From assembly GCA_031178065.1 (NCBI GenBank), contig JAPSJS010000013.1, positions 1 through 63,155 on the forward strand: 63,155 bases of DNA, written 5' to 3'. Made by a program: the position numbers and the translations under genes. The DNA comes from Altererythrobacter sp. (GTDB taxonomy: Bacteria; Pseudomonadota; Alphaproteobacteria; Sphingomonadales; Sphingomonadaceae). How positions within the stretch are numbered: position 1 is the stretch's first letter; every line of letters begins with the position of its first letter. The notes beneath the pieces were generated by a model. That model was given only the letters and a program-made list of their open reading frames with translations. It did not search any database and was not told the DNA's origin. Of this stretch, positions 20,471 to 39,213 are shown in pieces.

Positions 20471-20471
20471 C

Positions 20472-20690: not shown

Positions 20691-20695
20691 TTCGG

Positions 20696-21004: not shown

Positions 21005-21145
21005 GCCCTAAACAGAGCGGATCGTCTATATGGCGAATTGCGCCCGCCTGGTCGGGAAGCTGGCGGACATAGGCGTCATGGACTCTGAGCCGAATATCAG
21101 GAACAAGATCAGCCGGGGCAAATTTGCGGCGGTGTTTCTGATACA

Positions 21146-22012
21146 ATGCTTGGAGGCAATTGGGGTAGATACGGTGCGATTGCGCTAGCGGCACTGGCCG
21201 CAATTGGGCTGCTCACTTTCTCCTATAGCCAGTACAGGGAGGCGGCGGCGGTACAGTCCCTAATCGAGAGGCAAGCAAGCAATCAGACTCAAATAGAGGG
21301 TGAAGCTGCCCGCAGAGAGGGCCAGCGCTGCACCGAGATCATCCCTACGACGGAGCGCATTGATTGCGAGTATCGCGCCAAGGAGGGAGGTAAGGCCTCC
21401 CGGCGCGCGATACGCGACCTTGAAGCGCAGAAGGTCATGGCGCTGTGGACGCGCTATATGGGCCTCGCAGCGATCATTGGCACCGCTGTTGGCGTGATTG
21501 GCATTGGGCTGGTTTTTGTGACGTTCTATGAGGCTCGCAAGGCTAATAGGATTGCGAGAGAGTCCAACGAGCGGCAACTGAGAGCGTATCTCGCTGTTGA
21601 TGACGCCAGCATCGGATTGCACCCTGAAGAGGGGGAAATCGTGCTCCAGATCCGATTGAAGAACTGCGGACAGACGCCAGCATACAAGGCTTGCATCATG
21701 GGAGAAAGTTATGTTGCTCCCTATCCTTTGAAGGAGGAGCGGCCATTCCTGCCCGTTGATGAAGGGTGGACGACCACCATCGGTCCTGGCCTCGAACTCG
21801 GATGTGCGAAGCGCATCTTTACCGATGATGTTGCTTACGCCGTCGAAGAGGCCAAGGCGCGGAGGTCTGCCCTTTATATCCAAGGTGTCTGCCAATACGA
21901 GGACGCTTTCGGAGAAAAGCGCGAAACTTATTTCCGCTATGCTTTCGCGGGTATAGCCAGTGAGCACGGACTGCTTATGCAACCCGCGCCCACTGGCAAC
22001 TCCGCCACCTAA
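21146..22012 (+). CDS. hypothetical membrane protein with RAYLAVD motif
   Basis: A 288-residue protein with one helix at residues 10-26, a 75-residue charged loop with two cysteines (RCTEIIPTTERIDCEY), a second helix near 105-127 (AAIIGTAVGVIGIGLVFVTF), then a short linker (EARKANRIARESNERQLRAY) into a beta domain of about 140 residues. Two-helix proteins with RQLRAYL and such a C-terminal beta domain are common unnamed bacterial proteins. No ribosome-binding site is evident before the ATG, so the start is uncertain. Confidence 0.6.
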   Translation: MLGGNWGRYGAIALAALAAIGLLTFSYSQYREAAAVQSLIERQASNQTQIEGEAARREGQRCTEIIPTTERIDCEYRAKEGGKASRRAIRDLEAQKVMALWTRYMGLAAIIGTAVGVIGIGLVFVTFYEARKANRIARESNERQLRAYLAVDDASIGLHPEEGEIVLQIRLKNCGQTPAYKACIMGESYVAPYPLKEERPFLPVDEGWTTTIGPGLELGCAKRIFTDDVAYAVEEAKARRSALYIQGVCQYEDAFGEKRETYFRYAFAGIASEHGLLMQPAPTGNSAT

Positions 22013-22083
22013 CACTCCACAAACGATGACACCCACCACCATCAGCGTAGATACCATCTACGCATTGGTGGGCTTGCTACATA

Positions 22084-22287
22084 ATGCCGGAGTTCTGCTT
22101 CGAGTGGGTTGAACCTAGGCGATCCCCGCCTTTTCCACGTTTCTACATGACGCCTAGCGGGTTAGCGGCTGGTATGCGCCCCGATCCAGACCGATCCGAA
22201 TTTGAGTTCGCGCTCCTGTTCTTCCTGCTCGTGATTTCAGTAGGATACTGGATGCTACAAGCATTGTTCGCCGTCGTCGGCTTGTAG
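22084..22287 (+). CDS. possible small single-helix membrane protein
   Basis: A 67-residue frame with a C-terminal hydrophobic segment (FALLFFLLVISVGYWMLQAL). It lies in an otherwise empty 396-bp gap (22013-22408). No ribosome-binding site is seen; plausible but unproven. Confidence 0.35.
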   Translation: MPEFCFEWVEPRRSPPFPRFYMTPSGLAAGMRPDPDRSEFEFALLFFLLVISVGYWMLQALFAVVGL

Positions 22288-22408
22288 CAGGATGGCTGCC
22301 GTGGCCCCTGTCCAATAGGCGCAAAAGGAGATTCTTCTGGAATTTCTCTGAATTTCTTGCACTATCCCTCACGAGCGCTTGGGGAAGCGTTCGCTTATTG
22401 GGGGTATC

Positions 22409-23089
22409 ATGAAAATCACGCTCTTGGCGGCGACTGCCGCTGTCGTTGCTGTGCCGCTTGCTGCGCAGAGCACTCAATCACCGCTGCCGATCCAAGCTGT
22501 CCGTGCCGCTCCGCAGCCCGCGACGGTGCTGCCCGCGGGGACCGAGATCGCACTAAAGATGACGCAGGAAGTGACCACAAAGGGCAGAGGCTGGGAGGAA
22601 GGAGATCAATTCAACCTCGCCGTCGCCGCTCCGGTAATGTTGGGCGACTTCGTTGTCATTCCTGAGGGCACGAAAGCAATCGGTCGGATCACTTGGCTGA
22701 CAAGCCGAGGCGCTTTTGGCAAGTCCGGCAAGATGGATATCGAGCTCGAATATCTTGAGTTCGCCGGGCGACGCATCAATGTCGATGGCACATATCGTCA
22801 GGAAGGAAACGGCGCCACTCTCGCCACGGTAGGCGGCGTGATCGCAGCAGGCATTTTCGCTGGGTTCATTACGGGTCGGAGCGGTGTGATCCCTCAAGGT
22901 CGCGAACTCATGGCCACGCTCGAATCCGATTTGCCAGTCGCGCTGCCGGAAGGAGCTAGCCTCGCGCCTGTACCGGTCCAGGCAAGAGCGGTTCAGCCGG
23001 TCGAAGCCGTGGCACCTCCCGCCATTGATCCGGGTCCGCTGGTCGATGACCCCGATCCGACCCGGGAAGATGATGGGACCTCGCAATAG
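22409..23089 (+). CDS. exported protein of unknown function
   Basis: A 226-residue protein with a signal peptide (KITLLAATAAVVAVPLAAQS). The domain LPAGTEIALKMTQEVTTKG, EGDQFNLAVAAPVMLGDFVV, IPEGTKAIGRITWLTSRGAF resembles a beta-barrel cap as in OB- or TrbI-like envelope proteins. There is a glycine-rich hydrophobic segment (GGVIAAGIFAGFITG) and a proline-rich acidic tail. An upstream in-frame ATG at 22379 would bury the signal, so 22409 is used. It lies immediately before the HhH-type gene. Confidence 0.65.
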   Translation: MKITLLAATAAVVAVPLAAQSTQSPLPIQAVRAAPQPATVLPAGTEIALKMTQEVTTKGRGWEEGDQFNLAVAAPVMLGDFVVIPEGTKAIGRITWLTSRGAFGKSGKMDIELEYLEFAGRRINVDGTYRQEGNGATLATVGGVIAAGIFAGFITGRSGVIPQGRELMATLESDLPVALPEGASLAPVPVQARAVQPVEAVAPPAIDPGPLVDDPDPTREDDGTSQ

Positions 23090-23107
23090 GTGGTTGGTAG
23101 TCTCCAA

Positions 23108-23701
23108 ATGTCGCCTGCTCAGCAGATGCTTTGCTCCGCCATAACCGGGCATCCGATTCTGTTTCGTACGTTTCAGAGCTTGCAGAGCGGAGCGACGGAT
23201 GTCGTCGAGGTTCTCTCCGGCACGAAGGCTCGAAATGAGATCGGCTTGGATGAGCTACTCATCATTGGTCACGCGAAGCTATTCAAGGTGCAGGATCGTG
23301 CGCGGATTGAGCGCAATCTTCGCGCAAATTCGGAAGCAGCCGTGCGCGCTGCTTCGCGCGCTGCCTTCGCCGCTGAGGATGATCAATCTGCCATCACGAA
23401 CCTGATCACCCTTAACGGTGTGGGGGTCGCCGTCGCTTCGGCCGTACTTGCGTGGTGTTTACCAGATCGATGGCCTGTCATCGACAGGCACGCTTGGCGT
23501 ACGCTCACGATGTTCGGCGTGCTACGATCTCGTTCCGATCGGGCTCCCTTCCGAGTAGCTGATTACACCGAGTATTGCGACGCTGTGCGCCCCATCGCGA
23601 GCCAAGTGGATCGCTCACCACAGGCGATAGATACTTGGCTCTATTCGTTCGCGAGGTGTGGCCTCTCCCCTGCCGATGCCATACCGGCCACAACCCCCTG
23701 A
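23108..23701 (+). CDS. HhH-type (DNA glycosylase-like) protein
   Basis: A 197-residue protein. The central part LNGVGVAVASAVLAWCLPDR followed by WPVIDRHAWRTL matches the helix-hairpin-helix plus aspartate arrangement seen in HhH-GPD-related proteins (L-x-GVG-x-x-x-ASA ... P-x-x-x-x-x-D-x-R). In true glycosylases the loop aspartate after the hairpin is catalytic; D in VIDR would be the candidate. Substrate and biological role are unknown. A GTG at 23090, directly after the previous stop, is an alternative start. Confidence 0.55.
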   Translation: MSPAQQMLCSAITGHPILFRTFQSLQSGATDVVEVLSGTKARNEIGLDELLIIGHAKLFKVQDRARIERNLRANSEAAVRAASRAAFAAEDDQSAITNLITLNGVGVAVASAVLAWCLPDRWPVIDRHAWRTLTMFGVLRSRSDRAPFRVADYTEYCDAVRPIASQVDRSPQAIDTWLYSFARCGLSPADAIPATTP

Positions 23702-23868
23702 TCTTCGCCGCACCCTGATCAGCTGTTCGCCGGACTTGTAGGCAACCGCGCCATCGAAGCACTTCGCCATCGACAGAGAAATTGCGAACGCCGCAATGTA
23801 GTTGACGCCATTGGGCCCCCTACCTACCCTGCGAGTCTTGAAGTAATAAATGACAGGAGAGGTATGAT

Positions 23869-24081
23869 ATGAAGGCTATTCGTCTCTCGGCCCTTGCTGC
23901 ATTCGGTGCGTTAGGTAGCCTTGGACTAATTTCGGCTACGCCGGCATCTGCCACGCCGGGTCAGTGCGCCACTATTCACTCGAGCGAAATGGCAGGCTGC
24001 GGTCAGGATGTCGGCTGCCAGGCAGGCGCTACCATGCGGTACTTCCAGTGCCTTCAAGAAGAGGCCAGGGAGAACAGTTAA
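23869..24081 (+). CDS. small exported four-cysteine protein
   Basis: A 70-residue precursor with a signal peptide ending near ATPASA. The mature part of about 42 residues has four cysteines (GQCATIHSSEMAGCGQDVGC and YFQCLQ), enough for two disulphides in the periplasm. The ribosome-binding site AGGAGAGG precedes the ATG. The family is not recognised. Confidence 0.68.
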   Translation: MKAIRLSALAAFGALGSLGLISATPASATPGQCATIHSSEMAGCGQDVGCQAGATMRYFQCLQEEARENS

Positions 24082-24089
24082 TTCATGTT

Positions 24090-24111
24090 GCGGGTCCCGT
24101 GCGGGACCCGC
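24090..24111 (+). terminator. hairpin after the small cysteine-rich gene
   Basis: GCGGGTCCC (24090-24098), loop GTGC, GGGACCCGC (24103-24111): nine perfect base pairs, followed by TCATACTTTC, a weak T-rich tail. Probable terminator. Confidence 0.6.
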
Positions 24112-24155
24112 TCATACTTTCATCGGAGGGGGCGGCTGCGCTAGCAGCGTAGTCC

Positions 24156-24509
24156 ATGATCTTCGCTGCGATTGCCCTAACCCTCTGCGCGCCGGGCCCG
24201 CGCGATAACTGCGTGGTCGACGGTGATACCTTCTGGCTTGCCGGCGAGAAGGTGCGGATTGCCGACATCGACACGCCCGAGCTCAAGGGTGAGTGCCCAA
24301 GCGAGATAGCCCGCGCGCGCCAGGCGCGTGATCGGCTGCTCGCAATCCTCAACTCCGCGCCGTTCCAGATCCAGCGCGAGCGCGAGGACCGCTACGGCCG
24401 CACGCTCGCGATTATCACGAACGGCCGCGGCTCTGTCGGCAATCAGCTTGTCACGAAAGGCCTCGCGCGGACGTGGAGCGGACACAGGGAAGGGTGGTGC
24501 GGGGAATAG
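24156..24509 (+). CDS. thermonuclease-family (SNase fold) protein
   Basis: A 117-residue SNase-like protein with a short hydrophobic N-terminus, probably exported. Key residues: CVVDGDTFWLAGEKVRIADI (DGDT), DTPEL, and REREDRYGRTLAII (catalytic arginine region), plus GLARTWSGHREGWC. The set D-R-D-E-R for calcium-dependent nuclease activity seems present. Small exported nucleases of this type are common on mobile elements. A second SNase-like domain lies in the 1,619-residue protein of the same element. Confidence 0.8.
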   Translation: MIFAAIALTLCAPGPRDNCVVDGDTFWLAGEKVRIADIDTPELKGECPSEIARARQARDRLLAILNSAPFQIQREREDRYGRTLAIITNGRGSVGNQLVTKGLARTWSGHREGWCGE

Positions 24510-24571
24510 CTGCAATTGCAGGAATGCTTTGACCGCCGCGTCAGTTAACAGCATCCTACCGGTGCTGGGCC

Positions 24572-25063
24572 ATGCAGAACGATCCGATCGAAACCCTCAC
24601 CGACAAGCAGTCGGAAGTGCTGGAGCTCGTGCTCCGGCGCATGTCGTCCAAAGAGATCGCGCGCGAGCTCGGCATCTCGCACAAGTCCGTCGACAAGCGG
24701 CTCGATGCCGCGCGGATCAAGCTCGGGGCCGCCACACGCCAGGAAGCGGCGCGGATCTACGGCCTCGCCAAATACGGGGAATCGTTCCCCGGGCAGACGC
24801 TCCCCGTCACGCCGCTGGTCGATTCCGTGGAACCACCTACCGGCGCTTCGCAGGGCGGGGCAGAGGGAGGCGGGTCGCAATCATCCTCATCTCCCGCAGT
24901 TGAAAGTCCGCCCGTCCTGCGGAGCGCATCGTGGCTGGATCCAAAGGCGATTGGAACGGCAGGGAGATTGGGCCTCATCATCGCAGGAACGCTGTCGATT
25001 GGCGCGCTTCTGCTGGTCGGGCTCGGGATCGCGAACGGTCTCCAATCTCTGTTCGAACCGTAG
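24572..25063 (+). CDS. LuxR-type helix-turn-helix protein with C-terminal membrane anchor
   Basis: A 163-residue protein. The N-terminal LuxR/GerE domain (LTDKQSEVLELVLRRMSSKE, IARELGISHKSVDKRLDAAR) is at residues 8-60, then a proline- and serine-rich linker, then one C-terminal membrane helix (LGLIIAGTLSIGALLLVGLG). There is no receiver domain. DNA binding from the membrane is implied. It heads a run of plus-strand genes (24572-26692) that includes a receiver-like regulator. Confidence 0.78.
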   Translation: MQNDPIETLTDKQSEVLELVLRRMSSKEIARELGISHKSVDKRLDAARIKLGAATRQEAARIYGLAKYGESFPGQTLPVTPLVDSVEPPTGASQGGAEGGGSQSSSSPAVESPPVLRSASWLDPKAIGTAGRLGLIIAGTLSIGALLLVGLGIANGLQSLFEP

Positions 25064-25113
25064 GACCGATGGGCCGCCACGAGCGAAGCAACGCTCTCGG
25101 GGGGAGGCCCACT

Positions 25114-25449
25114 ATGCTTACGGTAGATGTCGCGACGATGCGGCTCCAGAAGGCAGTTACGGAAACGGAGATTGCGGTCGACGAGGCCGTCCTGAAAGTT
25201 ACTTCACTGATCCAGGAGATCGTGAACGCCCGATCCGAGTATCGGTCGCACGAAGCGGCTGTTTGCGCGCAGCCCGCGCTTCTCCGAGCGCAGCGTGCTC
25301 TCGCGAATCTGAACTCTGCGCAGGGCGAAGTCGCGCGAGCGCACGGCGAAATGCGCAGCGCGCATAAAATCATCGCCGGACCAGAGGAGCCCAATTGCCC
25401 CGATCTGCCGAGTATCCATACCGGCGCCCAACTTGCAGAGGCGAGTTAG
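25114..25449 (+). CDS. hypothetical coiled-coil protein
   Basis: A 111-residue, almost wholly helical protein (TMRLQKAVTETEIAVDEAVL, VTSLIQEIVNARSEYRSHEA, ALANLNSAQGEVARAHGEMR), probably coiled coil. The start at 25114 is chosen because GGGGGGAGG precedes it; the frame is open further upstream. No family is recognised. Confidence 0.62.
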   Translation: MLTVDVATMRLQKAVTETEIAVDEAVLKVTSLIQEIVNARSEYRSHEAAVCAQPALLRAQRALANLNSAQGEVARAHGEMRSAHKIIAGPEEPNCPDLPSIHTGAQLAEAS

Positions 25450-25485
25450 ATTGACCCTTTCGATCGTTCGGGTGAATGCCACCCG

Positions 25486-25926
25486 ATGCTCTACGTGCTC
25501 CAACTGGCGCTTCTAGCGGTCGCTACAGCGATTGCATTCTGGCGCGGGGGCTGGCCCGAACGATCGATCGCAACGATCATGATCGCCTGGGTGGTGATCG
25601 ATCGAGTGTTCCACCTGATCTTTCCTGGCGCCGAGACATATCGCGTCGTCGACCTCTGGCACTTCGGAATCGATCTGTGCGGCCTTGCGGCGTTCCTCTT
25701 CGTCGCTCTGAAGGCCGACAGGATTTGGACCTTATGGGTATGCTCACTTCAATTGATCTCGGTCCTGGGTCACATCTTGCGCCTCATCGACGAGGCCATG
25801 TTCGAGATCGTTTACGCAATCTTCCTCAGGTTTCCTTTTTGGATCGCCATCGCCTTGCTCCTGTGGGCGTCCGTGCGTCGCGCATGGAGCGCTCCTCGTG
25901 AACGCGCCGCAGGTCGCTCCCCTTGA
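25486..25926 (+). CDS. hypothetical four-helix membrane protein
   Basis: A 146-residue protein with four hydrophobic segments (YVLQLALLAVATAIAFW, SIATIMIAWVVIDRVFHLIF, FGIDLCGLAAFLFVALKA, FEIVYAIFLRFPFWIAIALL) and a basic C-terminus. Not recognised. The 3' end overlaps the start of the following regulator by 29 bp. Confidence 0.62.
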   Translation: MLYVLQLALLAVATAIAFWRGGWPERSIATIMIAWVVIDRVFHLIFPGAETYRVVDLWHFGIDLCGLAAFLFVALKADRIWTLWVCSLQLISVLGHILRLIDEAMFEIVYAIFLRFPFWIAIALLLWASVRRAWSAPRERAAGRSP

Positions 25927-26560
25927 GGATGCAGCGGCTTCTCCCGCCTGTTCAGGGCCACCGCGGCCCGCATTTCATATTGTTGAGCCCGATCCAACGA
26001 TCGGGGCGGCACTTCGGGAGACCGCGGCCGGTCATGGCCACCATGTGCATGTCTATGCCAGCGTCTGGGAGATGAGGCACGGCGGACCGATGGATGGCGT
26101 GTTATTGATTCGCGAGGCTGGCGAATGGGAGGGCGGCGAGGGAACCCTTCGAGACATCAGGGCGATGGCCGAGCGACTGCCAATCGTCATGACCTCGACT
26201 GAAGTCCGCGCAGATAAGGTCGTAGCAGCCATGAAGGCGGGCGCCTTAGATTACTTGGACTTGAGGCTGCCGCCGGCCGCGTGGCGCGAAGTGATTGCGC
26301 GCATCGTCGGCGAGGCCAAGGCGCATGCAGAGGCGTGGGAGCGTTTGTCCATTGCGCAGCGGCGTCTGAGTGCGCTGACCAGGCGAGAAAAGGAGGTCTT
26401 TGAGCAGCTGGCTCAGGGAAGCGTCAACAAAGAGGTAGCGCAAGCCCTCGGGATAAGCCCCCGCACCGTCGAGATCCATCGCGCTAATTTGCTGGCGAAA
26501 CTTCGGGTCAAGAACATGGTTGAGGCCATGCATTTGCGCTACGCTTCCGGCAGGGGGTAA
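25898..26560 (+). CDS. FixJ-like regulator with degenerate receiver domain
   Basis: A 220-residue protein: a receiver-like domain at about 25-140 and a LuxR DNA-binding domain at about 150-215 (LTRREKEVFEQLAQGSVNKE, VAQALGISPRTVEIHRANLL). The receiver starts FHIVEPDPTIGAALRE, but the strand that should end in the phospho-accepting aspartate reads GVLLIREAG, and the conserved lysine region reads DLRLPP. Phosphorylation therefore looks impossible, and the domain may bind a protein or act constitutively. Translated from a GTG inside the preceding gene. Confidence 0.75.
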   Translation: MNAPQVAPLEDAAASPACSGPPRPAFHIVEPDPTIGAALRETAAGHGHHVHVYASVWEMRHGGPMDGVLLIREAGEWEGGEGTLRDIRAMAERLPIVMTSTEVRADKVVAAMKAGALDYLDLRLPPAAWREVIARIVGEAKAHAEAWERLSIAQRRLSALTRREKEVFEQLAQGSVNKEVAQALGISPRTVEIHRANLLAKLRVKNMVEAMHLRYASGRG

Positions 26561-26563
26561 CGC

Positions 26564-26692
26564 ATGAAGCCTTGGGGTGACGAGCCGGAGGAGCGCGCCG
26601 GCCTTGCGCAGCGGATCGAGCGGCTGATCTTCGGTGCGCTGATCGGCGCTTCATTTTTCGTTCTGGTCGCATCGCTGTTCAACGCGATTTGA
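26564..26692 (+). CDS. small single-pass membrane protein (42 aa)
   Basis: Starts 3 bp after the regulator stop. Charged N-terminus (MKPWGDEPEERAGLAQRIER), then a hydrophobic helix (LIFGALIGASFFVLVASLF) to the end. The close spacing and the clean charged-then-hydrophobic pattern support a real gene. Function unknown. Confidence 0.55.
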   Translation: MKPWGDEPEERAGLAQRIERLIFGALIGASFFVLVASLFNAI

Positions 26693-26800
26693 TCTCAGAA
26701 TCCGCCGGCCGCGCGAGTAAAGGCAGGCGCAGGATGTTGGGGAACATAGCTGGAACAAGAGTGCTTGACCGACTCGGGTGGCGGCGCGCATCGCGAGGGC

Positions 26801-27154
26801 ATGGCCCGCCGCTCCACACTCCCGCGCGTGATCGACGAACGCGCCTTTCCTATTCGGGTGCTGATCAGGGACCGACCATCGGATTTCCTCCGCTGGTCGG
26901 CCGAGGAGATCTGGCTTCACGAAAATCTCGGTGCTGGCCAGTTCGCCATGCACGGGCGAGACGGCTATAATGGCCACACGAAGGCGTTCTACTTCTGCAT
27001 GATCGACGCGGCGCAGCGCTTCCTTGATGCGCACCCGCATCATGAACTGGCAGACGGAACATCGATGGCGCAGCATGTCGTCGAGGCGCGTCGCTGGGCT
27101 GCCAAGCCCGAGAGGGAGCGGATCGCTTTCGGATTCGGCTATCCAAGCAAGTGA
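26801..27154 (+). CDS. hypothetical protein
   Basis: A 117-residue protein (IRVLIRDRPSDFLRWSAEEI, WLHENLGAGQFAMHGRDGYN, FYFCMIDAAQRFLDAHPHHE). A mix of aromatic and charged residues suggests a folded soluble protein. I do not recognise the family. The frame is open upstream to a TTG at 26765; the ATG at 26801 is preferred. Confidence 0.5.
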   Translation: MARRSTLPRVIDERAFPIRVLIRDRPSDFLRWSAEEIWLHENLGAGQFAMHGRDGYNGHTKAFYFCMIDAAQRFLDAHPHHELADGTSMAQHVVEARRWAAKPERERIAFGFGYPSK

Positions 27155-27503
27155 GGCTTCGAGATTTGTAACCTCTACCGCATGACCCGCTCGAACGATG
27201 AGGTCGCCCGCGTCTTCCGCGTCGACAGCACAATCGACAACGCGGCCGAGGCGCCTCGAGCATGTATTGGCCGGAGCTGCGCTCGTCACCAAAACATATT
27301 TAGCTGGAGTTTTGTTCGGCTTTTATCGTGCGCGCAGTGCTACTTGTGCGGCGATTCCGCGCCTGCAGTTGACATCCTTAGCCTCGTCCACAAGTCTCGG
27401 GCCCCGTGGGGCATCTATTGCGGCAATCCAGCACGCAGGTTGCGGGAGCGAGAAAGAAGAATCCAAGCGCTTGAAAAGCAGCTGGTCGGCCGATTGACAG
27501 CAC
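27155..27503. other. stretch without a recognised gene
   Basis: About 350 bp between the hypothetical gene ending at 27154 and the hairpin before the minus-strand tail spike. Open frames here are short, lack ribosome-binding sites and show no protein-like pattern. It may be decayed sequence. Confidence 0.5.
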
Positions 27504-27529
27504 ACCCCGCCTGACGTCGACGGCGGGGT
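27504..27529 (-). terminator. hairpin at the 3' end of the Tat-signal tail spike gene
   Basis: ACCCCGCC (27504-27511), 10-base loop, GGCGGGGT (27522-27529), eight perfect base pairs reaching the stop codon. No T-run follows on the minus strand, so any termination would not be of the classical intrinsic type. Confidence 0.45.
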
Positions 27530-29250
27530 CATGCTTCAATCGACCCGAAATTCTTCCAAGAACCCGGATTGCCGCTCGCGACACATACAGCACCGACGTG
27601 ACCGCCGGCAGCGGGGTTTGTGAAATACACGATGTCGCCACGCGTCCAGGTGCCCGTTGTTGGAGCGGCCGAGGCCTGCCAGGTAACCTTCTTCGTGCCG
27701 TTGTGGACGGTCCATGTGCCCGCAGCCGGGATGGCAACTGCTGCGTTGCCGGCTGGGCCTTCCACCACGATGGCGGGATTTGAACCCGAAGACGCATTTT
27801 TCGCCACCACACCCGGCCCGGTACCGGTGTTCGTCCCTCGAACCGCGGGCCCTGACGAACTGGTCGTCTCGAAGTTCTGAGCTTGTGACTGCATCTTCTT
27901 GTAGCCGGCCATCCCAAGGACGATCGGGCGGGTTGCTCCAGATACATCGATGCGCTGGCCCGGGCCGGCATTCGGATCATATCCTTCGATATAGGGCACA
28001 TTGTCGCTGTCGATCCGGTTCTCGACGCCGGTATCGACAATCCAAGTGGTGTCGGCGCCGAAGCACTCGCAGCGCTTGGGAGAAAAGCGATTACGCGTAC
28101 CTGCCAGCCGCGCCAGCTTAAAGCCTTGCCCAACCCACTCTAGCGAGTTGTCAGTGAACCAGTTGCCATTCGGTGCGTAGACAGAGTCGTCGATGTAGAT
28201 GTGGCCCGCCTGCGGTTCGTAAAGCGCTCCGGCAAAGGAGAAACCGTCATCGCCGCCGAACCACCGGCCACTGATGAACTCGTTCGAGTTGACCCAGCTC
28301 TCAGAAGTCTCAGCGGAAAGCCAGACGCCAACGTTGTGGTGGTGCATCTCGCCGAAGATGAACCGATTATACACGCAGCCTTTGCCATTGGCGTGAAGCC
28401 AGACCCCTCTCGTGGCATACGAGCCTGAGATCTCAAAGTGGCCGTGATAGACGTTCTGAAAGTAGAACCCCACGCGGTCCTTGGTGAAGTCGTAATTCGG
28501 CCACTGGACCTTCAGTCCCCCGGTAATGCGAGGGCCGAGCAGTCGCTGCCCAGGGGGCGCAGCGTATCGCACGGCGATCCCATCGTGCAGCGGGACGAGT
28601 TCGGAGTTCTGTGCTCGTACGACCGGCACTTCTGAAAGGTCGATCGTGTTGCTCGCCGCATACCGCCTGTTCTGGAAGACGAGAGCACATCCAGGATTGG
28701 CAGCGACTGCCGCCGCAGCCCTGGTGATGGCAAGGAGATCGTCAGTTTTGCCATCGCCGACGGCGCCAAACTGCTCAGGGTAGATGCCTTGCCTACGTAC
28801 CGCGCTCTGCAGCGTCTCAGTGATTGCATCGACCCCGGCCTGTACGAAGCCGAGTACCGTCGCGCCGACGGAGGACCGAAGATAGCCGATGAAGCCCGCG
28901 ATGGTGCTCCAGAGAGCGCCACCGTGCCCGTCATCGGAACCTATCATCGTGTCACCGTCGGGTGACGCGAGGGCGGCGGCGGTTCTCTCGTTGTAGAGAA
29001 GATCAGAGCCGTCCGCTGTGCGCTGGCGAACTTCTGCCAGGCCGGCGCTAGAATCGACCCGCTTGAAGAATGCACCATTAGGCGTAGCCCCTTCGGCTTC
29101 TGCCAAAGGTAAGTCCACGAAGATACGCTGAAACTCAACGATATCCGAGACTCGATCGCGCGCCAGTTCTGCGGCTGCGACAGAGGGGACGGCGGCGGCG
29201 CCGACGATGCCACCAAGCGCAGCACGGCGCGTAACGTTTCGTTTGACCAT
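27529..29250 (-). CDS. pectate-lyase-fold tail-spike homologue with twin-arginine signal
   Basis: A 573-residue protein. It starts with a Tat-like signal (KRNVTRRAALGGIVGAAAVP, AAA cleavage region). Residues of about 95-170 resemble the linker of phage tail spikes (SSVGATVLGFVQAGVDAI, then QFGAVGDGKTDD). The right-handed beta-helix follows (GCVYNRFIFGEMHHHNVGVW, DTTWIVDTGVENRIDS), ending with GTWTRGDIVYFTNP. From residue 165 on it is homologous to the tail spike at 30251-32104, which is on the opposite strand and has no signal. An ATG-less extension upstream to 29367 is unlikely. Export to the periplasm or beyond is inferred. Confidence 0.82.
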   Translation of the reverse strand: MVKRNVTRRAALGGIVGAAAVPSVAAAELARDRVSDIVEFQRIFVDLPLAEAEGATPNGAFFKRVDSSAGLAEVRQRTADGSDLLYNERTAAALASPDGDTMIGSDDGHGGALWSTIAGFIGYLRSSVGATVLGFVQAGVDAITETLQSAVRRQGIYPEQFGAVGDGKTDDLLAITRAAAAVAANPGCALVFQNRRYAASNTIDLSEVPVVRAQNSELVPLHDGIAVRYAAPPGQRLLGPRITGGLKVQWPNYDFTKDRVGFYFQNVYHGHFEISGSYATRGVWLHANGKGCVYNRFIFGEMHHHNVGVWLSAETSESWVNSNEFISGRWFGGDDGFSFAGALYEPQAGHIYIDDSVYAPNGNWFTDNSLEWVGQGFKLARLAGTRNRFSPKRCECFGADTTWIVDTGVENRIDSDNVPYIEGYDPNAGPGQRIDVSGATRPIVLGMAGYKKMQSQAQNFETTSSSGPAVRGTNTGTGPGVVAKNASSGSNPAIVVEGPAGNAAVAIPAAGTWTVHNGTKKVTWQASAAPTTGTWTRGDIVYFTNPAAGGHVGAVCVASGNPGSWKNFGSIEA

Positions 29251-29483
29251 CACGACAGTTTCGCTGGCGCCTGGATTCGCTGCAAGGGATAGTTTGGAAA
29301 TCTGCCAGCAGAAACTGTCCTGCGACGCAGCCGCCTTTCCCCATGGTCGCGACGTGCCGAGAACCAACTCGCCATAATCGCGCGGGAGCCTGGCCGGCGA
29401 GTTCGCTGCGGCGATCTACGCTCGGGCTGAGGCGTTCAGACTCGCTTACGCGCCTGCATTCTGGGCGCTTTGCTGCCACTTCG

Positions 29484-29861
29484 TCAATCGTCTATCGGCC
29501 ATCCCAGATCCCTGTAGGCATCGAACGTAGCCCGCGTCAGCCGAAACGTAAGCGCGATCACGTCCGCCTGCTCAAACACCGCGAACAGTTGATCGGCCTT
29601 AAACAGGCCGTCCCGACGTTGGGTCTCGAAGTCAGGCGTCCTGCTCTCACCGCGGCGCATCGCCTCCACGGCCTCGATCCGCTCAGCTGCGCTATCCACT
29701 TCCGCAAACTCACCGATCAGGCGTTGCTCATACCACTCTGCACCAACGGTCTCGCCCTTGATGCAGACTGCGCCAAACTCTCCGGCCTGTGCGTCCGTGA
29801 CTTGTGCGTAGACCGTGCCCGCTGGCAGCAAGAGAAATGTCTGTCGATCGACGATGTTCAC
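29484..29861 (-). CDS. hypothetical phage-type protein
   Basis: A 125-residue protein (FLLLPAGTVYAQVTDAQAGE, FGAVCIKGETVGAEWYEQRL, DQLFAVFEQADVIALTFRLT). It is located 233 bp upstream of the Tat-signal tail spike on the same strand, and I recognise only its phage-like setting. The 29251-29483 gap holds no gene. Confidence 0.58.
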   Translation of the reverse strand: MNIVDRQTFLLLPAGTVYAQVTDAQAGEFGAVCIKGETVGAEWYEQRLIGEFAEVDSAAERIEAVEAMRRGESRTPDFETQRRDGLFKADQLFAVFEQADVIALTFRLTRATFDAYRDLGWPIDD

Positions 29862-30061
29862 GAAGCCTCCTCCTGCCCCACAACTTGCGGTCGCTGGTTT
29901 CCCCCCAGGCTACTGAAGGCTTGCCTCGAAGCAAAGCGGGTGTTCGGCATGGCGTACATAGGAGGATCAAAGCAGGGTATAATCAGATACATTCGTTGAC
30001 TTTTTGAGGAACATGTGCTACGGACGCATCACACATCGTCGGGATGACAGAGGTGTAAGCA

Positions 30062-30196
30062 ATGCAGGACGTTCACGTAAGTTTTCGGGCCAACTCTGCT
30101 GTCGTGGCGGAGTTGGCCCGGCGCGCCGAGAAGGCGGGCTGCTCTGTGTCCGAGTACCTGCGTGCCGTTGTGCGCGAGAAGGTCGGGCTCCAATGA
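30062..30196 (+). CDS. ribbon-helix-helix small protein (44 aa)
   Basis: Pattern of a ribbon-helix-helix DNA-binding protein: strand DVHVSFRANS, helix 1 VVAELARRAEKAGC, turn SVSEY, helix 2 LRAVVREKV. A perfect TATAAT stands at 29978-29983 upstream, though without a clear -35. Between two divergently oriented late gene groups, it is well placed to regulate them. A 24-residue frame overlapping its stop (ATGA at 30193) is probably not a gene. Confidence 0.65.
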   Translation: MQDVHVSFRANSAVVAELARRAEKAGCSVSEYLRAVVREKVGLQ

Positions 30197-30220
30197 GCCG
30201 CGCTTCATCTGCACCGAAGT

Positions 30221-30244
30221 CCCCGATGCTCACGAACATCGGGG
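30221..30244 (+). promoter_or_regulatory. 8-bp hairpin covering the tail spike ribosome-binding site
   Basis: CCCCGATG (30221-30228), loop CTCACGAA, CATCGGGG (30237-30244). The right arm ends in the G-run that should act as ribosome-binding site for the ATG at 30251. Folding would hide it, suggesting translational control of the late genes. Confidence 0.55.
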
Positions 30245-30250
30245 GCTGCT

Positions 30251-32104
30251 ATGAACAAATTCTATGAGACTCTGACGAACCTGCGCGGTGACGTGCTGTT
30301 CGGATACCGCACTCAGGTGGTCGACCCAACGGGCGCGATCGTCGATATCTACAAGGATCGCAACGGCACGCGGTTCACCGATAGCAGCGGCAACATCGTC
30401 AACTATGCCGAGGCCAGTACCGATACAGGCATGGCCGAGTTCTACTGGACGGCTGCGACCGGACATATCCTCCAGATCACTGATAGCAGTGGCGAACTAG
30501 CCCGTCCTCCGATCATCGGTGTCGGTGACAACTATGTGCTGGGCAACCTCTCGGGCGACCTCCCCACGACCGCAATTGACGGACTGGATGCCACGCTCGC
30601 GGCGAAGGCAGACACCACCTACGTTGACACCGGCCTTGCTGAAAAGGTCCCCACTGCCGACCTCGCCTCTACCGATACCGGCAAGGGGGCGGCGATGGTC
30701 AAGCTGACTTCCGGCGGGGACGTTCAGGAGGCCATTCAATACGTCACCCCCGAAATGTTCGGTGCGGCAGCAGACGGCATCACTGACGACAAGATCGCGA
30801 TCGACGCGGCGATTGCGTTCGTCGCGGCTAATTCCGGCACGCATCTTCTATTCAATCAGAAGAGCTACGCCACCAGCGGAACGGTGGACCTCACGACGGT
30901 GAAGGTCACAGTTTCGCGGGGAGCAACGATCGTCCCCACTCACGATGGAACCGCTGTGCAGTACGCCGGAGCCTCCGGCACGATCATTCAGTCTCCGCGC
31001 TTAGAAGGTAATCTCCGTGTTGCTTGGGCGACAGTTGATTGGACCAAGGACCGTCTCGCGTTCCTTATCCAGAACTGTTACTTTGGCGTGTTCGGTGTTT
31101 CGTGGTACAACGCCACGCGCGGCATCAAGGTTCATGGCAACGGCACCGGCTGCGTTTACAACGAGATCACCATTGGTGAAGGCTTCCGGGCCAATGTAGG
31201 CATCTGGCTGTCCAGTGAGACGGCAACGGGATGGTCGAACGCGAACAAGTTCTCTGGCGGGCGTCTGTATGGCGCGAGAGCCGTGGCAGGCTCTCTTTAC
31301 GAAGCGCAGGCCGGTCACATTTGTTTCGATGACAGCTTGTATCAATCGAATGGTAACGAATTTGACCTGTCCCTTGAATGGTCCGGAACAGGCTTCCGGC
31401 TAGCCCGCATGGGCGGCATTCGAAACCGGCTCTATCCGCGGTATGCGGAGTTGGACAGCGGCGACACCACCTGGATTGTCGATACCGGTACCGAAAATCT
31501 GATCGACTGCGAAGGCGTGGCCTACCTCGCTGGCTACGACCCGTCTCTCGCAGGTTCAGCGAACCGAGTGGACGTCTCCGGCGCAACCAGGCCGATGGTT
31601 CGCGGGCAACAGTCGTACTTCGATGCTGGCGGCACGGGCGCTGACATTCGTAAAGTCCAAAGCACGACCAGACCGGCGATATGGGCGCAAAACTCTGGCT
31701 CGGGCGCGGCTGTTCGGGCGCAGAACACCAGTAGTGGGGCCAACCCGGCCCTTGAGGTGGTTGGGGCGTCCGGCGGGGCCGGGGTTTCCATTCCGGCGGC
31801 GGGGACGTGGACCGTCTTTAACGGCACAAAAAAGGTTGCATGGTCCAGCGCCATCGCCCCCTCGACAGGAGCGTGGACGAGAGGCGATATCGCGTGGATC
31901 ACGAATCCCTCCACGGGGGGCCCTGTGGGCTGGATTTGCACCGCCAGCGGAACGCCCGGCACGTGGGTTCCTTTGGGGATTGCCGGAGCAAGCCGCGCTG
32001 CGGCGGTCACAGACCCTGCGGGCGGCACTACCGTAGACACTGAGTGTCGGGCCCAACTAGCGGCGCTGATCGACTCCCTGCAAGCTGCGGGACTGATGGC
32101 ATGA
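30251..32104 (+). CDS. phage tail spike protein, pectate-lyase fold
   Basis: A 617-residue protein. The N-terminal 150 residues form a virion-attachment region (KFYETLTNLRGDVLFGYRTQ, DPTGAIVDIYKDRNGTRFTD, FYWTAATGHILQI), with the typical layout of short-tail phage spikes. A beta-helix starts at VTPEMFGAAADGITDDKIAI and runs to about 480, with GTWTRGDI-like GAWTRGDIAWITNP, then a C-terminal helix (ECRAQLAALIDSLQAAGLMA). It should bind or cut a surface polysaccharide. It heads a coupled late cluster; its stop overlaps the next start (ATGA). Confidence 0.85.
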   Translation: MNKFYETLTNLRGDVLFGYRTQVVDPTGAIVDIYKDRNGTRFTDSSGNIVNYAEASTDTGMAEFYWTAATGHILQITDSSGELARPPIIGVGDNYVLGNLSGDLPTTAIDGLDATLAAKADTTYVDTGLAEKVPTADLASTDTGKGAAMVKLTSGGDVQEAIQYVTPEMFGAAADGITDDKIAIDAAIAFVAANSGTHLLFNQKSYATSGTVDLTTVKVTVSRGATIVPTHDGTAVQYAGASGTIIQSPRLEGNLRVAWATVDWTKDRLAFLIQNCYFGVFGVSWYNATRGIKVHGNGTGCVYNEITIGEGFRANVGIWLSSETATGWSNANKFSGGRLYGARAVAGSLYEAQAGHICFDDSLYQSNGNEFDLSLEWSGTGFRLARMGGIRNRLYPRYAELDSGDTTWIVDTGTENLIDCEGVAYLAGYDPSLAGSANRVDVSGATRPMVRGQQSYFDAGGTGADIRKVQSTTRPAIWAQNSGSGAAVRAQNTSSGANPALEVVGASGGAGVSIPAAGTWTVFNGTKKVAWSSAIAPSTGAWTRGDIAWITNPSTGGPVGWICTASGTPGTWVPLGIAGASRAAAVTDPAGGTTVDTECRAQLAALIDSLQAAGLMA

Positions 32105-32199
32105 CCGATCGTCGCTCCATCACCCTCATGGCCCTGCTGGCCCTTTCGGTCATCAGCAGCGCGCCCTCTGCCTTCTACGTGTGGAGGCGGTGCAGATGA
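32101..32199 (+). CDS. 32-residue single-pass membrane peptide
   Basis: Sits between the tail spike and the next gene with four-base ATGA overlaps on both sides (32101-32104 and 32196-32199), so it is almost certainly translated. Short charged start (MTDRRS), hydrophobic helix (ITLMALLALSVISSAPSAF), then YVWRRCR with a terminal basic cluster and one cysteine. The topology suits a small lysis-related or assembly membrane protein, but no family is recognised. Confidence 0.7.
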   Translation: MTDRRSITLMALLALSVISSAPSAFYVWRRCR

Positions 32200-32633
32200 C
32201 CACGCGAGCAAACACAGGGGTTTACTCGGCCAGCTTCAATCCCTTCCGCTATCTCTCTGCCGCCGCGTCAGGAGATATCGAGGCACAGCGAACCCTCGCT
32301 GAGCGGGGCATCGAACTCGCCATAGCGCAAGGCGATCTGCTTACAGCGCTGGACTCTGCAGTTTTCGCCCGGCTGGCAGCGGCGCAGGGCTCGCGCGGCG
32401 ACAAGGGGCGACTGCTCTCGATCCTGGCGTTGGCAAGCTCCCTCACCTCCGAGGATGAGGGGGACTTACGCGAAAGCCTTACGGCCGAAAGCCTCGCGCT
32501 AGTCTCGCTCCTTGCCGATGACGGCGAGGAATGTGCCGATCAGTTTCTGCTCAGCATAGCGGAGCATTCCACGCCCACCGCTGTCGAGCTCTCCAAACAT
32601 TTGCGAGCTGCGATGCTCGACAAGGGGGAATAA
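32196..32633 (+). CDS. hypothetical late phage protein
   Basis: A 145-residue protein, entirely helical in appearance (AAASGDIEAQRTLAERGIEL, ALDSAVFARLAAAQGSRGDK, SIAEHSTPTAVELSKHLRAA), with the flavour of a TPR- or Sel1-like repeat though no clear repeat unit is seen. Coupled at both ends: ATGA with the peptide before it, TAATG with the ejection-type protein after it. Confidence 0.68.
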   Translation: MTTRANTGVYSASFNPFRYLSAAASGDIEAQRTLAERGIELAIAQGDLLTALDSAVFARLAAAQGSRGDKGRLLSILALASSLTSEDEGDLRESLTAESLALVSLLADDGEECADQFLLSIAEHSTPTAVELSKHLRAAMLDKGE

Positions 32634-33664
32634 TGTACCAGCTAGCACAGGGTGCCCAACCCGATCCCATGCTTGCGGCGTCCTTTCGCAGGGCCAAGCC
32701 CGGACTTTTCGGCTCCAGAAGGAAGAGCCCCAGCAGATACCTTGAGTTGCCTCAAGGGCAGGACGGCCAGCCGGTAGTCCCGGGTCCGATTAGCGGGTTC
32801 GGTGGCGGAACGTGGAATCTCGATGGCAGCCAGGCCACCGCGCCCGATGGTGCGTCGGCCATGGCGCAGCCGAGTGCACACCCGTCACAAGACGCCGGCA
32901 ACATCGGAATGGATAACCCGGCACCGAACACTGGCCCGCTTGGTGGTTCGATGCGCCAGCCGTTCGACTATGAGCGGGCGCTTGAGGTCCTAAAAGGCGA
33001 CCAGGGCAAGCCGAAGGCGTGGCAATACGCGCTTGCTGCTGTGGGCGATGCTCTGGCTATGAACAGCGGTTACCAGCCTTACGCGGTCCAGAACCTCACC
33101 GCAGCGCGCAACGAGCAGGCTCAGCGCCAGCGCGAGGCTGCCGCGCAAGTCCTTGGTTGGCGGTATAACGATTACGCTCGCAACCAGGAGGCGGACCTTC
33201 GGGCGGCAGCACCGTTCTCCAGCGGTCGGGATCGGGTGCAGTTCGATCCGGCCACCGGGCAGTCGCGCGTCATCCACGATGGTGCCGAGGACTTCCAGAC
33301 CTATGCCGACGAACTTGGCCTTGCGCCGGGCAGCGAGGAATATTCCAAGGCCGTCGAGGACTTTGTCCTGCGCTCCGCTGGCCCCTCTGCCTACGAGCGC
33401 GACGTACAGTTGGACGACCACCGAACCGGCAACGATGCCGAGCTTGAGCGCATCCGCAATGGCTTCCGTGTCGGCCTCGAGCAGCTGCGCCAGGGCAACC
33501 GCCGGGGCATGGTCGATTACCGCAATGCCAACCCGGCCCCACTCCGGTCGCGGAGTAAGGCGGGTTCTAACTCGTTGGTGACGGTCAAGACTCCTGCGGA
33601 GGCTGCGAAGCTTCCCAAGGGGACGCGGTATCGTGGCCCCGATGGGGTGGTGCGCGAACGATGA
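32633..33664 (+). CDS. phage ejection-type structural protein
   Basis: A 343-residue protein rich in Q, P and G in the first 110 residues, then helical (RALEVLKGDQGKPKAWQYAL, NLTAARNEQAQRQREAAAQV), ending with VKTPAEAAKLPKGTRYRGPD, GVVRER. This C-terminal motif (EAAKLPxGTxYRxPDG) is common in phage virion proteins ejected with DNA. Its stop overlaps the start of the giant protein, matching the order of internal proteins in short-tailed phages. Confidence 0.68.
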   Translation: MYQLAQGAQPDPMLAASFRRAKPGLFGSRRKSPSRYLELPQGQDGQPVVPGPISGFGGGTWNLDGSQATAPDGASAMAQPSAHPSQDAGNIGMDNPAPNTGPLGGSMRQPFDYERALEVLKGDQGKPKAWQYALAAVGDALAMNSGYQPYAVQNLTAARNEQAQRQREAAAQVLGWRYNDYARNQEADLRAAAPFSSGRDRVQFDPATGQSRVIHDGAEDFQTYADELGLAPGSEEYSKAVEDFVLRSAGPSAYERDVQLDDHRTGNDAELERIRNGFRVGLEQLRQGNRRGMVDYRNANPAPLRSRSKAGSNSLVTVKTPAEAAKLPKGTRYRGPDGVVRER

Positions 33665-36600
33665 GCGATCCGTGGCCGGGCCGCGTGGTCGATACCCCCG
33701 AGTCGAGGTGGCCCGGCACGGTCGTAGCGCCCACCCCAACAGCTTCTCCCCGGCGGAGCCGCACGATCTTCGGTGCACGCCCCCGCACGCCTGCACCGCT
33801 GGATAGCGCGACGGCAACGGATGGCGACACGATCCGCTCGGGCGATTTGCGTGTGCGCCTGTGGGGCGTTGATGCACCTGAACTCAATCAACCGGGCTTC
33901 GACCGGCAGGGCAACGCAGTGTCGATCGGTCAAGCATCACGCGACTACCTCCAGGGACAGATCTCTGATGCCCGTACGGCGCGCCTCGATGATGTTGCGG
34001 GTATGTCTTGGGGCCGCCCTGTCGGTCCTGTCTCGCTAGATGGCAGGGACGCGGGGCTTGGCTCGATCCGGTCGGGCAATGCACGTGCTGCGCCTGACTA
34101 CTTGGAGGGCGACCCTAGCCGACGGTTTGACTACATGCAGGCCGAACGGCTGGCGCGTGTGAACCAGCTCGGGCCGATGAATGACACGATGGCGCAGAAC
34201 CCCGCGGCTTTCCGCAGGGGTGTCGCGCCTCGGCAAACGGTTGCGCAGTTCTGGGATACGCCCACCCCGTTTCAGGGGATGCGGCCGGAAGCCGAAAAGC
34301 AATATCTCCAGCTGCTCGATAGTGCGCCCGCTGCCGAGATTGCGGCCTTTGCAGAATCGCAGGGGCTTAGCCTCGATCCCAAGTATCTCGCATCATGGGT
34401 GGAGGATCGCGACAAGCGGAAGGCGAAGGGCCTGCCCTACACCGTCGCGGCCCGATACAGCGAAACCCCTCTGGCTACGCAGGAACTTGGCGACGGCGCG
34501 ATAGGGGCTGGCGTGCGTGGGTATAGTGACGGCTTTGTGGCCGGCGCCCTGGGCGAGCTTGGCGCGGTGGCTGATACACTCGGCGGCACCGAGGGGCGGG
34601 AGAACATCTGGAACAGCGATCGACGCCTCGCCGATATTTGGGCGAACAACGAGTATCAGAATGCGGCCATCCTCCGAGGTGATGAAGTCGCTCATCCGAC
34701 TGCTTCCACGGTTGGGCAGATTGGCGGCGCTCTCACCTCGGGCTTTGTCATTCCCTACGGGCAAGGCGCTCGCACCATTCCCCAGCTTGCCCGCGTGGGT
34801 GCCGTCTATGGCGGGACCGAGGGCTTCATGGGGACTGATGGTACCGTGCCGCAGCGCCTTACTGGAGCGGCCATAGGGGCTCCAGCGGGCGCGATCATCA
34901 ACGCAGCGGGAGGCAAGGCTCTCGAAGCCGCCGCTCCGCTGCTCGGTCACGCTGCGGACGTTGTGCGTGGCCGTCTTGGCCGTGAGGCTTCCCCCACGGC
35001 CGTTGCTGCTGCCGAAACGGCTGGCGAAGCCGGAATAGACTACGCGGACGACACGGCGCGCGGTGCCGTGGAAGATGCAGCCTTGGGCGCTGCCGATGGA
35101 TGGCCGGGCCGCGTCGTAGACGAACGCACGATTGCGATGAATGCTGCCCCCGAACCATCGCTGTCCGCCCCGGCGCGTGTGCGCGATTACCTCGATGTGC
35201 AGGCGGTGCGTCCCACGCTTCTTTCCGATCCCCTTAGCGATGCCCAGCGCATGGCTGCCGCCGCCAACGTCCAGCCGAGCGATGTGTTGCCCCTGCCTGC
35301 GAACACGCTTGGCGGGGTTGAGGAGGCGATTGCCAAAGATGCCGGGCGCTTCGTGACAGCGAAGACTCCCGACGAACGGGCAGAGCTCTCCCGCACGACG
35401 ATTAGGAATTACATGGGTGCGCCGGTCCCCAAGATCGGACCCATGGATATGGTCGGCTGGCTCCGCACGCGGGGTGGCTTAGTCGATCAGGGCGGCGAAC
35501 TCTCCGCGATCGGGATCACGTCGAACGCCGCCCGCAAGGGAATGGATTTCGTCGGGCAAGAGACGCGCTTTGGCCCGATGGTGAACGACAATGGCCTGAC
35601 GCTGGACGAAGCCGCGTTGCAGGCATGGGAAGCTGGGTTCTTCCCCGAGCGCCTAGGGCGCCCTGATGTGAACACGTTCCTGGATGCGCTGCGCGAAACC
35701 TACGACGGCACGCGCGGGCGCCGGTTCCTGCCCGACGATCTGCCGGAGCTTGAACGCTACTACAGTATGCAAGGTGATCGCTACGATCTGGAGCAGCGCC
35801 AAGAGGAAGTCGGCGGGCCGGTCTATGAAGATGCTGCAACCCCGGCTGGCGAACCCCTGCCGTTCCCGCCGGCTGAAGCCTATGACGATTGGGCAGGGGT
35901 CAACGCGGTCCAGCAAGTCGGCAATATCGATGTCACCAAGCTGGACTCGCCGCAGGATATCAGCCGGGCGCTGAAGGCAACGGGCGATATGATGGGCGGC
36001 TTCGACGCTGCCACGCGCGGACGGATCACTCAGGCCGAAACCGGATTGCTCGCGTCTGACCTGAACATGACGCCCGAACAACTGCTGTCGCGCCGCAAGG
36101 GGCAGGCGATGAACGCAGAGGAAGCACTGGCCGCGCGCCGGATCCTCGCGAAGTCGGGCAACGAATTGGTCAACCTCGCCAAGCGTGTGAAGCAAGCGGG
36201 CGAATATCCTGATGGCGAGCTGCTGGCGCAATTTCGGCAAGCGCTGGTGCGGCATTCGGCCATTCAGGAACAGGTCGCAGGTGCCACGGCAGAGGCCGGG
36301 CGTGCACTCGGGCAATTTCGCATGGCTGCCGATAGCCGAGAGGTCCAGCGCCACGTTCTTGCCGCATTCGTCCGCGGTGGCGGAGGGCAGGATCGGCTTG
36401 AGGAAGCCGCAAACGTGCTGCTCGATGCCGTCGAGATGGGGCCGGGCAGGTTCAACGCGGTGGCCGAGAAGATCGCGAAGCCCAAGTGGCGCGACAAGGT
36501 CGCGGAGATCTACATCAACTTCCTCCTGTCGTGGCCGCAGACGCACGCGGTCAACGTCACGTCGAACACGCTCACGTCGCTGGCGCAGATTCCCGAATAT

Positions 36601-38520: not shown

Positions 38521-38546
38521 TTGGAAAAGCCAATGCAAAAGGGGTT

Positions 38547-38563
38547 TTGTCCCTAGTGTCCCT
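38547..38563 (-). repeat. second iteron-like pair
   Basis: TTGTCCCT (38547-38554) followed directly by AGTGTCCCT (38555-38563): the inverted form of the 9-mers at 15842-15916, in the same 9-bp register, 27 bp after the giant gene. On the circular excised element it lies about 6 kb from the first cluster. Confidence 0.45.
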
Positions 38564-38751
38564 GCTTCGCGCCTTCCAGTCGTGCCGCCGTACTTCGGCG
38601 AGGCTTTACGACCTTGGACACTCGCGAGAATCGCGCTCGGAGCGAGCCCGTGATGTTCGTCGATCTGAGTAAGTTGGATTAGACGAATCCGCGAGCGGCT
38701 CCCACCATCAGGGCCGATGGATACCGAAGCGCAGAAGTTGCGACCTTAAAT

Positions 38752-39057: not shown

Positions 39058-39213
39058 TATGGCATTCTCTAATGCTTGCAGCACGAGAGCAAGGGCATTG
39101 GGCGCTCGCGGGGCGAGGGACACCACGCGTCTGGCTCATTTGAAAAGGGAGAGCAACTAGATCTGTGGCGGGGGTTTGCGAAGCGCGCTGGCCACAGCCT
39201 TCCCTGATCGGCG

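What the first reader, a model, noticed from the sequence alone, without database searches (positions are those of the whole stretch)
27529..32104. Divergent pair of homologous tail spikes, one given a twin-arginine export signal
The proteins at 27529-29250 (minus) and 30251-32104 (plus) are homologous over about 450 residues (shared GCVYN, DTTWIVDTG, VDVSGATRP, GTWTV, NGTKKV, TRGDI). The plus copy has a virion-attachment N-terminus. The minus copy starts with TRRAALGG plus a hydrophobic stretch and an AAA cleavage site. A lysogen could export this spike to cut or cover the same surface polysaccharide the phage binds, giving superinfection exclusion or surface remodelling. This would be a new use of a receptor-binding protein. 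The export role is inference.
Basis: partly seen in the sequence, partly recalled or inferred. Interest (0 to 1): 0.75.

Follow-up and report, generated by a model that had tools for sequence, protein, structure and literature searches.

The report
Stranded tail-spike gene, doubtful export signal
A bacterial mobile element carries, beside its own phage tail-spike gene, a second spike gene taken from another kind of phage; what looked like a protein-export signal is the middle of that phage's attachment leader, so export is possible but unproven.

Summary
Both proteins are there and are homologous: 51% identity over 425 residues, E = 1e-144. The plus copy looks like the element's own spike: a related element in the same genus has the same N-terminus on another beta-helix (by eye). 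The minus copy is foreign. In two related elements an intact SRAP gene lies beside the small phage gene (window 29484-29861); in the window about 2.2 kb, holding only the minus gene, lies between an SRAP stump and that gene. The "Tat signal" is inherited phage sequence: the 18 codons directly upstream of ATG 29250 match a tail-spike leader (KISxLP...ExVV), rank 1 of 92,717 six-frame windows. In the nearest prophage spikes RR stands at residues 28-29. The leader's start codon is missing here, ATG 29250 has no Shine-Dalgarno pairing, and two curated Tat models stay silent while both pass another product of this element. Most likely a stranded, decaying or hardly expressed spike gene. Not excluded: re-start at the inner Met and export. 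Two exopolysaccharide-locus proteins have this module with Met at the same place, and a Tat-signal-bearing tailspike-fold enzyme, WceF, is known (PMC7949094).

The parts
10407..39289 (.). integrated element between 15-bp direct repeats (10407-10421, 3' end of tRNA-Gln; 39275-39289); integrase 10561-11745, primase 13288-14301, helicase-like 14298-15803, spike and internal virion protein genes; no capsid, portal or terminase match among 20 ORF products scanned against PHROGs
27529..29250 (-). minus spike gene from ATG 29250: 573 codons, tail-spike-type receptor-binding part, homologous to the plus copy
29251..29304 (-). vestigial phage leader in frame directly upstream of ATG 29250 (QISKLSLAANPGASETVV); no start codon at the leader's start
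29173..29250 (-). Tat-like stretch MVKRNVTRRAALGGIVGAAAVPSVAA; in phage relatives an internal part of the spike leader
   Evidence: not reported by PF10518 or TIGR01409; no Shine-Dalgarno pairing
27252..29455 (.). approximate extent of the foreign segment, absent from related elements of the same genus; borders by eye from alignments
27164..27251 (+). stump of an SRAP (SOS response associated peptidase) gene cut off at the segment's left border; approximate
   Evidence: the family name comes from Pfam on the C81 copy
29484..29861 (-). small phage gene (phrog_11827, function unknown) at the right border; 86% (G001) and 82% (G003, 96 residues) identical in related elements
30251..32104 (+). plus spike gene: probably the element's own spike; adaptor MNKFYETLTNLRGDVLFGYR shared with the related element in G003 (by eye)
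33661..38520 (+). internal virion protein (phrog_6651), 87% identical in G006

Best explanation
The minus gene is one tail-spike gene from another kind of phage that was inserted into this element and cut off its SRAP gene. Its TRRAALGG...AAA stretch is the inner part of that spike's virion-attachment leader. The leader continues in frame upstream, but its start codon is gone and the remaining inner ATG has no ribosome-binding signal. I infer that the gene is now mostly silent or decaying: a stranded receptor-binding domain of the same family as the element's own spike, serving at most as a donor for recombination. The foreign origin and the leader are shown by sequence; low expression is inferred.
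For: Leader: 18 codons just upstream of ATG 29250 score 24.6 bits against a profile of 9 phage leaders, rank 1 of 92,717 six-frame windows in the 63 kb, runner-up 11.4. A prophage spike (L124) aligns without internal gaps from ISQLALVAEPDGSETIPMVKDGQTRR through the IFVD module. Single-gene insertion: two related elements have SRAP and the small gene side by side without it. Adaptor unlike that of the element's own spike type. No Shine-Dalgarno pairing at ATG 29250 (-0.5 kcal/mol), weaker than all 8 other element starts (-3.0 to -12.1) and all 19 host starts (-1.7 to -9.5) tested. Tat profiles negative with a working control.
Against: The 573-codon frame is intact, and the beta-helix part shows past constraint against the plus copy (pN 0.34, pS 0.69 over 412 codons; old divergence that does not date any decay). 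In two other genomes the leader is likewise disabled while the frame behind it is intact, which would be odd for plain decay. The weak pairing at GTG 29253 (-2.5) and TTG 29367 (-2.3) still lies within the range of host starts.
Confidence: 0.55

Rival explanations
1. Re-started and exported: with the leader start lost, translation begins at ATG 29250 and the former leader works as a Tat signal; the lysogen exports the spike domain, which trims or masks the polysaccharide that this element's own spike and the C81 prophage's spike also bind.
For: Two relatives inside exopolysaccharide loci (G106, G229) have the module with Met at the same place, RR at residues 8-9, aligned without gaps through residue 100. 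G413 (beside polysaccharide genes) and G390 have disabled leaders and intact frames behind them. RR is present in these four and the window, but in only 3 of the 9 phage leaders (the search model favoured RR, so this is biased). TatC is present. Three beta-helix paralogues occur in this one genome. The gene stands alone against the late genes, as cargo genes often do (recalled).
Against: PF10518 and TIGR01409 do not report this N-terminus; they are silent on G106, G229, G088, G390 and G413 too, so their silence does not separate the readings. No Shine-Dalgarno pairing at ATG 29250. The N-terminus is closer to phage forms (56% and 47% over 36 columns) than to the exopolysaccharide-locus forms (44%, 44%), and the true phage L124 looks by eye just as Tat-like from its inner Met, so the resemblance alone proves nothing.
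Confidence: 0.3
2. Still a virion spike: the whole leader is translated from TTG 29367 or another start, and the protein is packed into particles of some helper phage.
For: The frame is open to TTG 29367 and the leader is still recognisable. The C81 prophage encodes matches to terminase, head-tail adaptor and tail proteins that could serve a partial element.
Against: A TTG start would put about 21 residues before the leader that the nine phage leaders do not have. The leader type differs from the spikes of this element type and of C81. The gene lies on the strand opposite to the late genes.
Confidence: 0.1

Closest known systems
Prophage tail spikes with a KISxLP leader (e.g. L124 of IMGVR_UViG_2636415534; Blastomonas sp. 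CACIA14H2 contig AYSC01000033.1; no family name found)
   Same: Leader, TRR stretch and IFVD...LYxExTAxAL module in the same order; L124 aligned without internal gaps
   Different: They have a start codon at the leader and, for 8 of the 9 used here, a tail-fibre-like gene within about 1 kb upstream (by eye, not profile-searched); here the start is gone and the gene stands alone on the opposite strand; the beta-helix differs. TRR itself is in 2 of the 9, RR in 3 of the 9
WceF of Pantoea stewartii (PMC7949094)
   Same: Tailspike-type protein with an RR-bearing N-terminus; the paper reports a Tat signal, a tailspike-like crystal structure and activity on the exopolysaccharide stewartan (passages)
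   Different: WceF lies in an exopolysaccharide gene cluster; here the gene is in a mobile element, the Tat profiles are negative, and no structure or activity is known. No sequence comparison with WceF was made; it was not among the PDB hits
Exopolysaccharide-locus beta-helix-type proteins of G229 (Croceibacterium selenioxidans LX-88) and G106
   Same: Same ~105-residue N-terminal module with Met at the same position
   Different: Chromosomal polysaccharide loci, no match to the window protein beyond the module, no leader seen upstream in G106 (by eye)

Membership tests
Tat-exported tailspike-fold exopolysaccharide enzyme (WceF type) | N-terminus recognised as a Tat signal | tested here: not met
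   PF10518 and TIGR01409 silent on the whole protein and on its first 80 residues; both pass their cut-offs on the 19526-19978 product. By eye the n-, h- and c-regions look Tat-like.
Tat-exported tailspike-fold exopolysaccharide enzyme (WceF type) | translation starts just before the RR motif | tested here: inconclusive
   ATG 29250 exists but has no Shine-Dalgarno pairing (-0.5); phage leader in frame upstream
Tat-exported tailspike-fold exopolysaccharide enzyme (WceF type) | right-handed beta-helix fold | tested here: inconclusive
   AlphaFold2 model unusable (mean pLDDT 31.6); Pfam pectate-lyase-like match 14.4 bits, below cut-off 27; one weak PDB hit for the three-paralogue profile, 7chu_A, E 0.0013
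Tat-exported tailspike-fold exopolysaccharide enzyme (WceF type) | gene in a polysaccharide locus | tested here: not met
   Inside a tRNA-Gln-integrated element
Tat-exported tailspike-fold exopolysaccharide enzyme (WceF type) | host has a Tat translocon | tested here: met
   TatC on C10, E 1.2e-71; TatA/B not searched
Phage tail spike with KISxLP leader | leader sequence | tested here: met
   rank 1 of 92,717 windows
Phage tail spike with KISxLP leader | receptor-binding part of the tail-spike kind | tested here: met
   8 of the 9 PHROG families matched at E below 0.001 are annotated as tail; homologous to the plus copy and to the C81 spike, whose N-terminus weakly matches Phage_T7_tail (19.8 bits, below cut-off 25.2)
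Phage tail spike with KISxLP leader | leader is translated from its own start | tested here: not met
   no start codon at the leader's start; only TTG 29367 further upstream in the open frame
Phage tail spike with KISxLP leader | present in virions | not testable with these tools
   needs proteomics

The most novel reading that the evidence does not exclude
The virion-attachment leader of a family of sphingomonad phage spikes is a latent Tat signal. Whenever its outer start is lost, the inner Met seven residues before RR yields an exportable protein. Hosts and mobile elements have used this repeatedly to turn captured spikes into secreted polysaccharide-directed proteins (G106, G229, perhaps G413, G390), and the window shows the step caught inside a mobile element.
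Probability: 0.25. Interest if true: 0.75.

Novelty: new variant of a known kind. Interest (0 to 1): 0.42.

Why it matters
If the gene is only stranded, it warns that Tat-like N-termini can be phage leader pieces. If the novel reading holds, it gives a one-step route from receptor-binding protein to secreted surface-modifying protein, and could explain the origin of some tailspike-fold exopolysaccharide enzymes. A reporter fusion would test it directly.

Tried and rejected
Structure: one AlphaFold2 job on a two-row alignment gave pLDDT 31.6, so no fold search was run. Relatives of the full minus protein: none in phage records, plasmids, IMG/VR or GTDB contigs (reach close relatives only); in 197 relative genomes the only other homologues of the receptor-binding part over its length are in the own genome. 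A tblastn of the G360 leader and module found nothing in phage records, so the leader's phage nature rests on prophages and IMG/VR contigs. Invertible-cassette idea: the inverted homologies of 20 nt or more are 71-76% alike and at most 86 nt, so no sign of recent inversion by homologous recombination. Repeats at the borders of the foreign segment: nothing longer than 9 nt in two 140-nt stretches. Hits put aside by eye: G077 and G603 (other genes), G472 (module-like, no leader), G218 and G255 (spikes with other leaders), G088 (RR N-terminus without the module), L126 of Novosphingobium clariflavum (different leader, same module). Tree building was not attempted (few, short sequences); pairwise identities only. 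The lesion-position estimate (three of three disabling changes in the first 20 of 600 codons, 3.7e-5) is post hoc, rests on an assumed uniform rate and my own count of lesions, and is not used as proof. Slips mended: the G229 protein was given one codon late, and L124 was given two codons inside its inner Met; repeat the Tat scan with the right ends and the same outcome.
Full report
Observation. The two ORFs exist at the stated coordinates and are homologous over 425 residues at 51% identity. A third paralogue lies on contig C81 of the same genome; its prophage also encodes matches to a terminase, a head-tail adaptor and tail proteins. Phage records, plasmids, IMG/VR and GTDB contigs gave no relative of the minus protein at those sensitivities. 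In 197 relative genomes 5, counting the own one, had any match; the four others match only in part.

The element. A 15-bp direct repeat at the 3' end of tRNA-Gln (10407-10421) and at 39275-39289 bounds an element with integrase, primase, helicase-like protein, spike and internal virion protein. Among 20 ORF products of the element scanned against PHROGs (10, 10) there is no capsid, portal or terminase match; about ten further predicted genes were not scanned there. In the genus, the internal virion protein has matches in 5 of 7 genomes, the own one included (87% over full length in G006, long parts in G001 and G003, a short stretch in G005), and the integrase is 78-79% identical in G006 and G001. 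In G003 the spike starts with the same adaptor as the window's plus copy (MNKFYETLTNLRGDVLFGYR, by eye) and continues with a different beta-helix; in G006 I saw no spike ORF at that place. So the plus copy is probably the element's own spike type.

The minus gene is an insertion. In G001 and G003 an SRAP gene of 196 codons lies next to the phrog_11827 gene; G006 has SRAP too but no match to the small gene. In the window, homology to SRAP stops near 27251 and homology to the region of the small gene resumes near 29455 (borders read by eye). The only predicted gene in between is the minus spike.

The Tat-like stretch is a phage leader. A search with the first 150 residues hit 9 of 397 genomes of the family; an alignment model hit 13 of 397 and, over the order, 9 of 396; counts include the own genome, and several hits are weak (listed under Tried and rejected). 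Nine such leaders were aligned. Eight have a Met at the leader's first residue (one row was cut one codon short in the alignment); in G206 the ORF's Met is five codons further upstream. A tail-fibre-like gene lies within about 1 kb upstream of eight of the nine (by eye); G206 is at a contig end. TRR occurs in 2 and RR in 3 of the nine. The window's open frame reads on upstream of ATG 29250 as ISKLSLAANPGASETVV. A profile of 18 columns from the nine leaders ranks exactly those codons first of 92,717 stop-free six-frame windows (24.6 bits, next 11.4; leave-one-out scores of the nine run from 30.1 to 45.7, so the window is weaker than each of them).

Is the inner ATG used? Against: pairing of the 20 bases upstream with the anti-Shine-Dalgarno sequence is -0.5 kcal/mol at ATG 29250, -2.5 at GTG 29253 just before it and -2.3 at TTG 29367, against -3.0 to -12.1 for the eight other element genes tested; nineteen host starts range from -1.7 to -9.5, and the median of 824 plus-strand ATGs is -3.0. 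PF10518 and TIGR01409 report none of seven N-terminal 80-mers (window, L124 inner Met, G106, G229, G088, G390, G413) at E up to 10, while both pass their cut-offs on the 19526-19978 product (whole proteins gave the same picture, with PF10518 just under its cut-off on that control, 22.5 vs 22.7). As the exopolysaccharide-locus relatives are missed too, this does not exclude export. For: in G229 (Croceibacterium selenioxidans LX-88) and G106 the same module begins with a Met at the same place and lies in loci with Poly_export and Wzz/GNVR genes, plus sugar-transferase and O-antigen ligase genes (G229) or a flippase-type gene (G106). In G413 the leader is interrupted by a stop codon and in G390 it is out of frame, but the frames behind it are intact, and G413 lies beside polysaccharide genes. 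The signal region of the window is nearer to phage forms (56% and 47% of 36 columns) than to G229 and G106 (44% each), and these two are only 28% identical to each other there, so they may be separate captures; the opposite direction of transfer is not excluded.

Judgement. Origin as a foreign phage spike with an inherited RR stretch: about 0.93. Present state: relic or hardly expressed 0.55, re-started and exported 0.3, still virion-borne 0.1, other 0.05. Superinfection exclusion is a possible effect of the second reading and has no evidence here. The beta-helix fold is inferred from PHROG tail families and motif, not from a model.

Literature. Seven searches (listed of found: 3 of 3, 7 of 7, 2 of 2, 2 of 2, 10 of 38, 10 of 35, 8 of 31) gave one direct precedent, WceF (PMC7949094; passages and one section read): a Tat-signal-bearing, tailspike-fold enzyme of an exopolysaccharide cluster. 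None of the listed titles and abstract starts describes a phage leader turned into a Tat signal; that statement covers only those listings.

Noticed in passing
19526-19978 (-): A 150-aa product inside the element that both curated Tat models recognise (TIGR01409 21.4 vs 16.7, PF10518 24.0 vs 22.7 bits on its first 80 residues): a better candidate for an element-encoded exported protein than the minus spike.
   Followed up: partly
10407-39289: The element has integration, primase and helicase-like genes, spike and internal virion protein but no capsid, portal or terminase match in the 20 products scanned; related elements occur in G001, G003, G006. Phage satellite or deletion derivative?
   Followed up: partly
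L008:9683-11635 (contig C81, own genome): Third paralogue of the same receptor-binding part on a spike whose N-terminus weakly matches Phage_T7_tail (19.8 bits, below cut-off), in a prophage with terminase and tail protein matches.
   Followed up: partly
24156-24509 and 33661-38520: The nuclease-like gene and the N-terminal part of the 1619-aa internal virion protein match the same PHROG (phrog_18798).
   Followed up: no
24572-25063 and 25898-26560: Two LuxR-type (GerE) regulator genes in the middle of the element, which struck me as unusual neighbours for phage late genes.
   Followed up: no
L037:1522-3090 (G088): A pectate-lyase-like protein starting MIRDSVTRRGALGGLVATSAV beside an aminotransferase-like gene (named by eye): same RR placement but without the phage module; convergent or stripped.
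   Followed up: no
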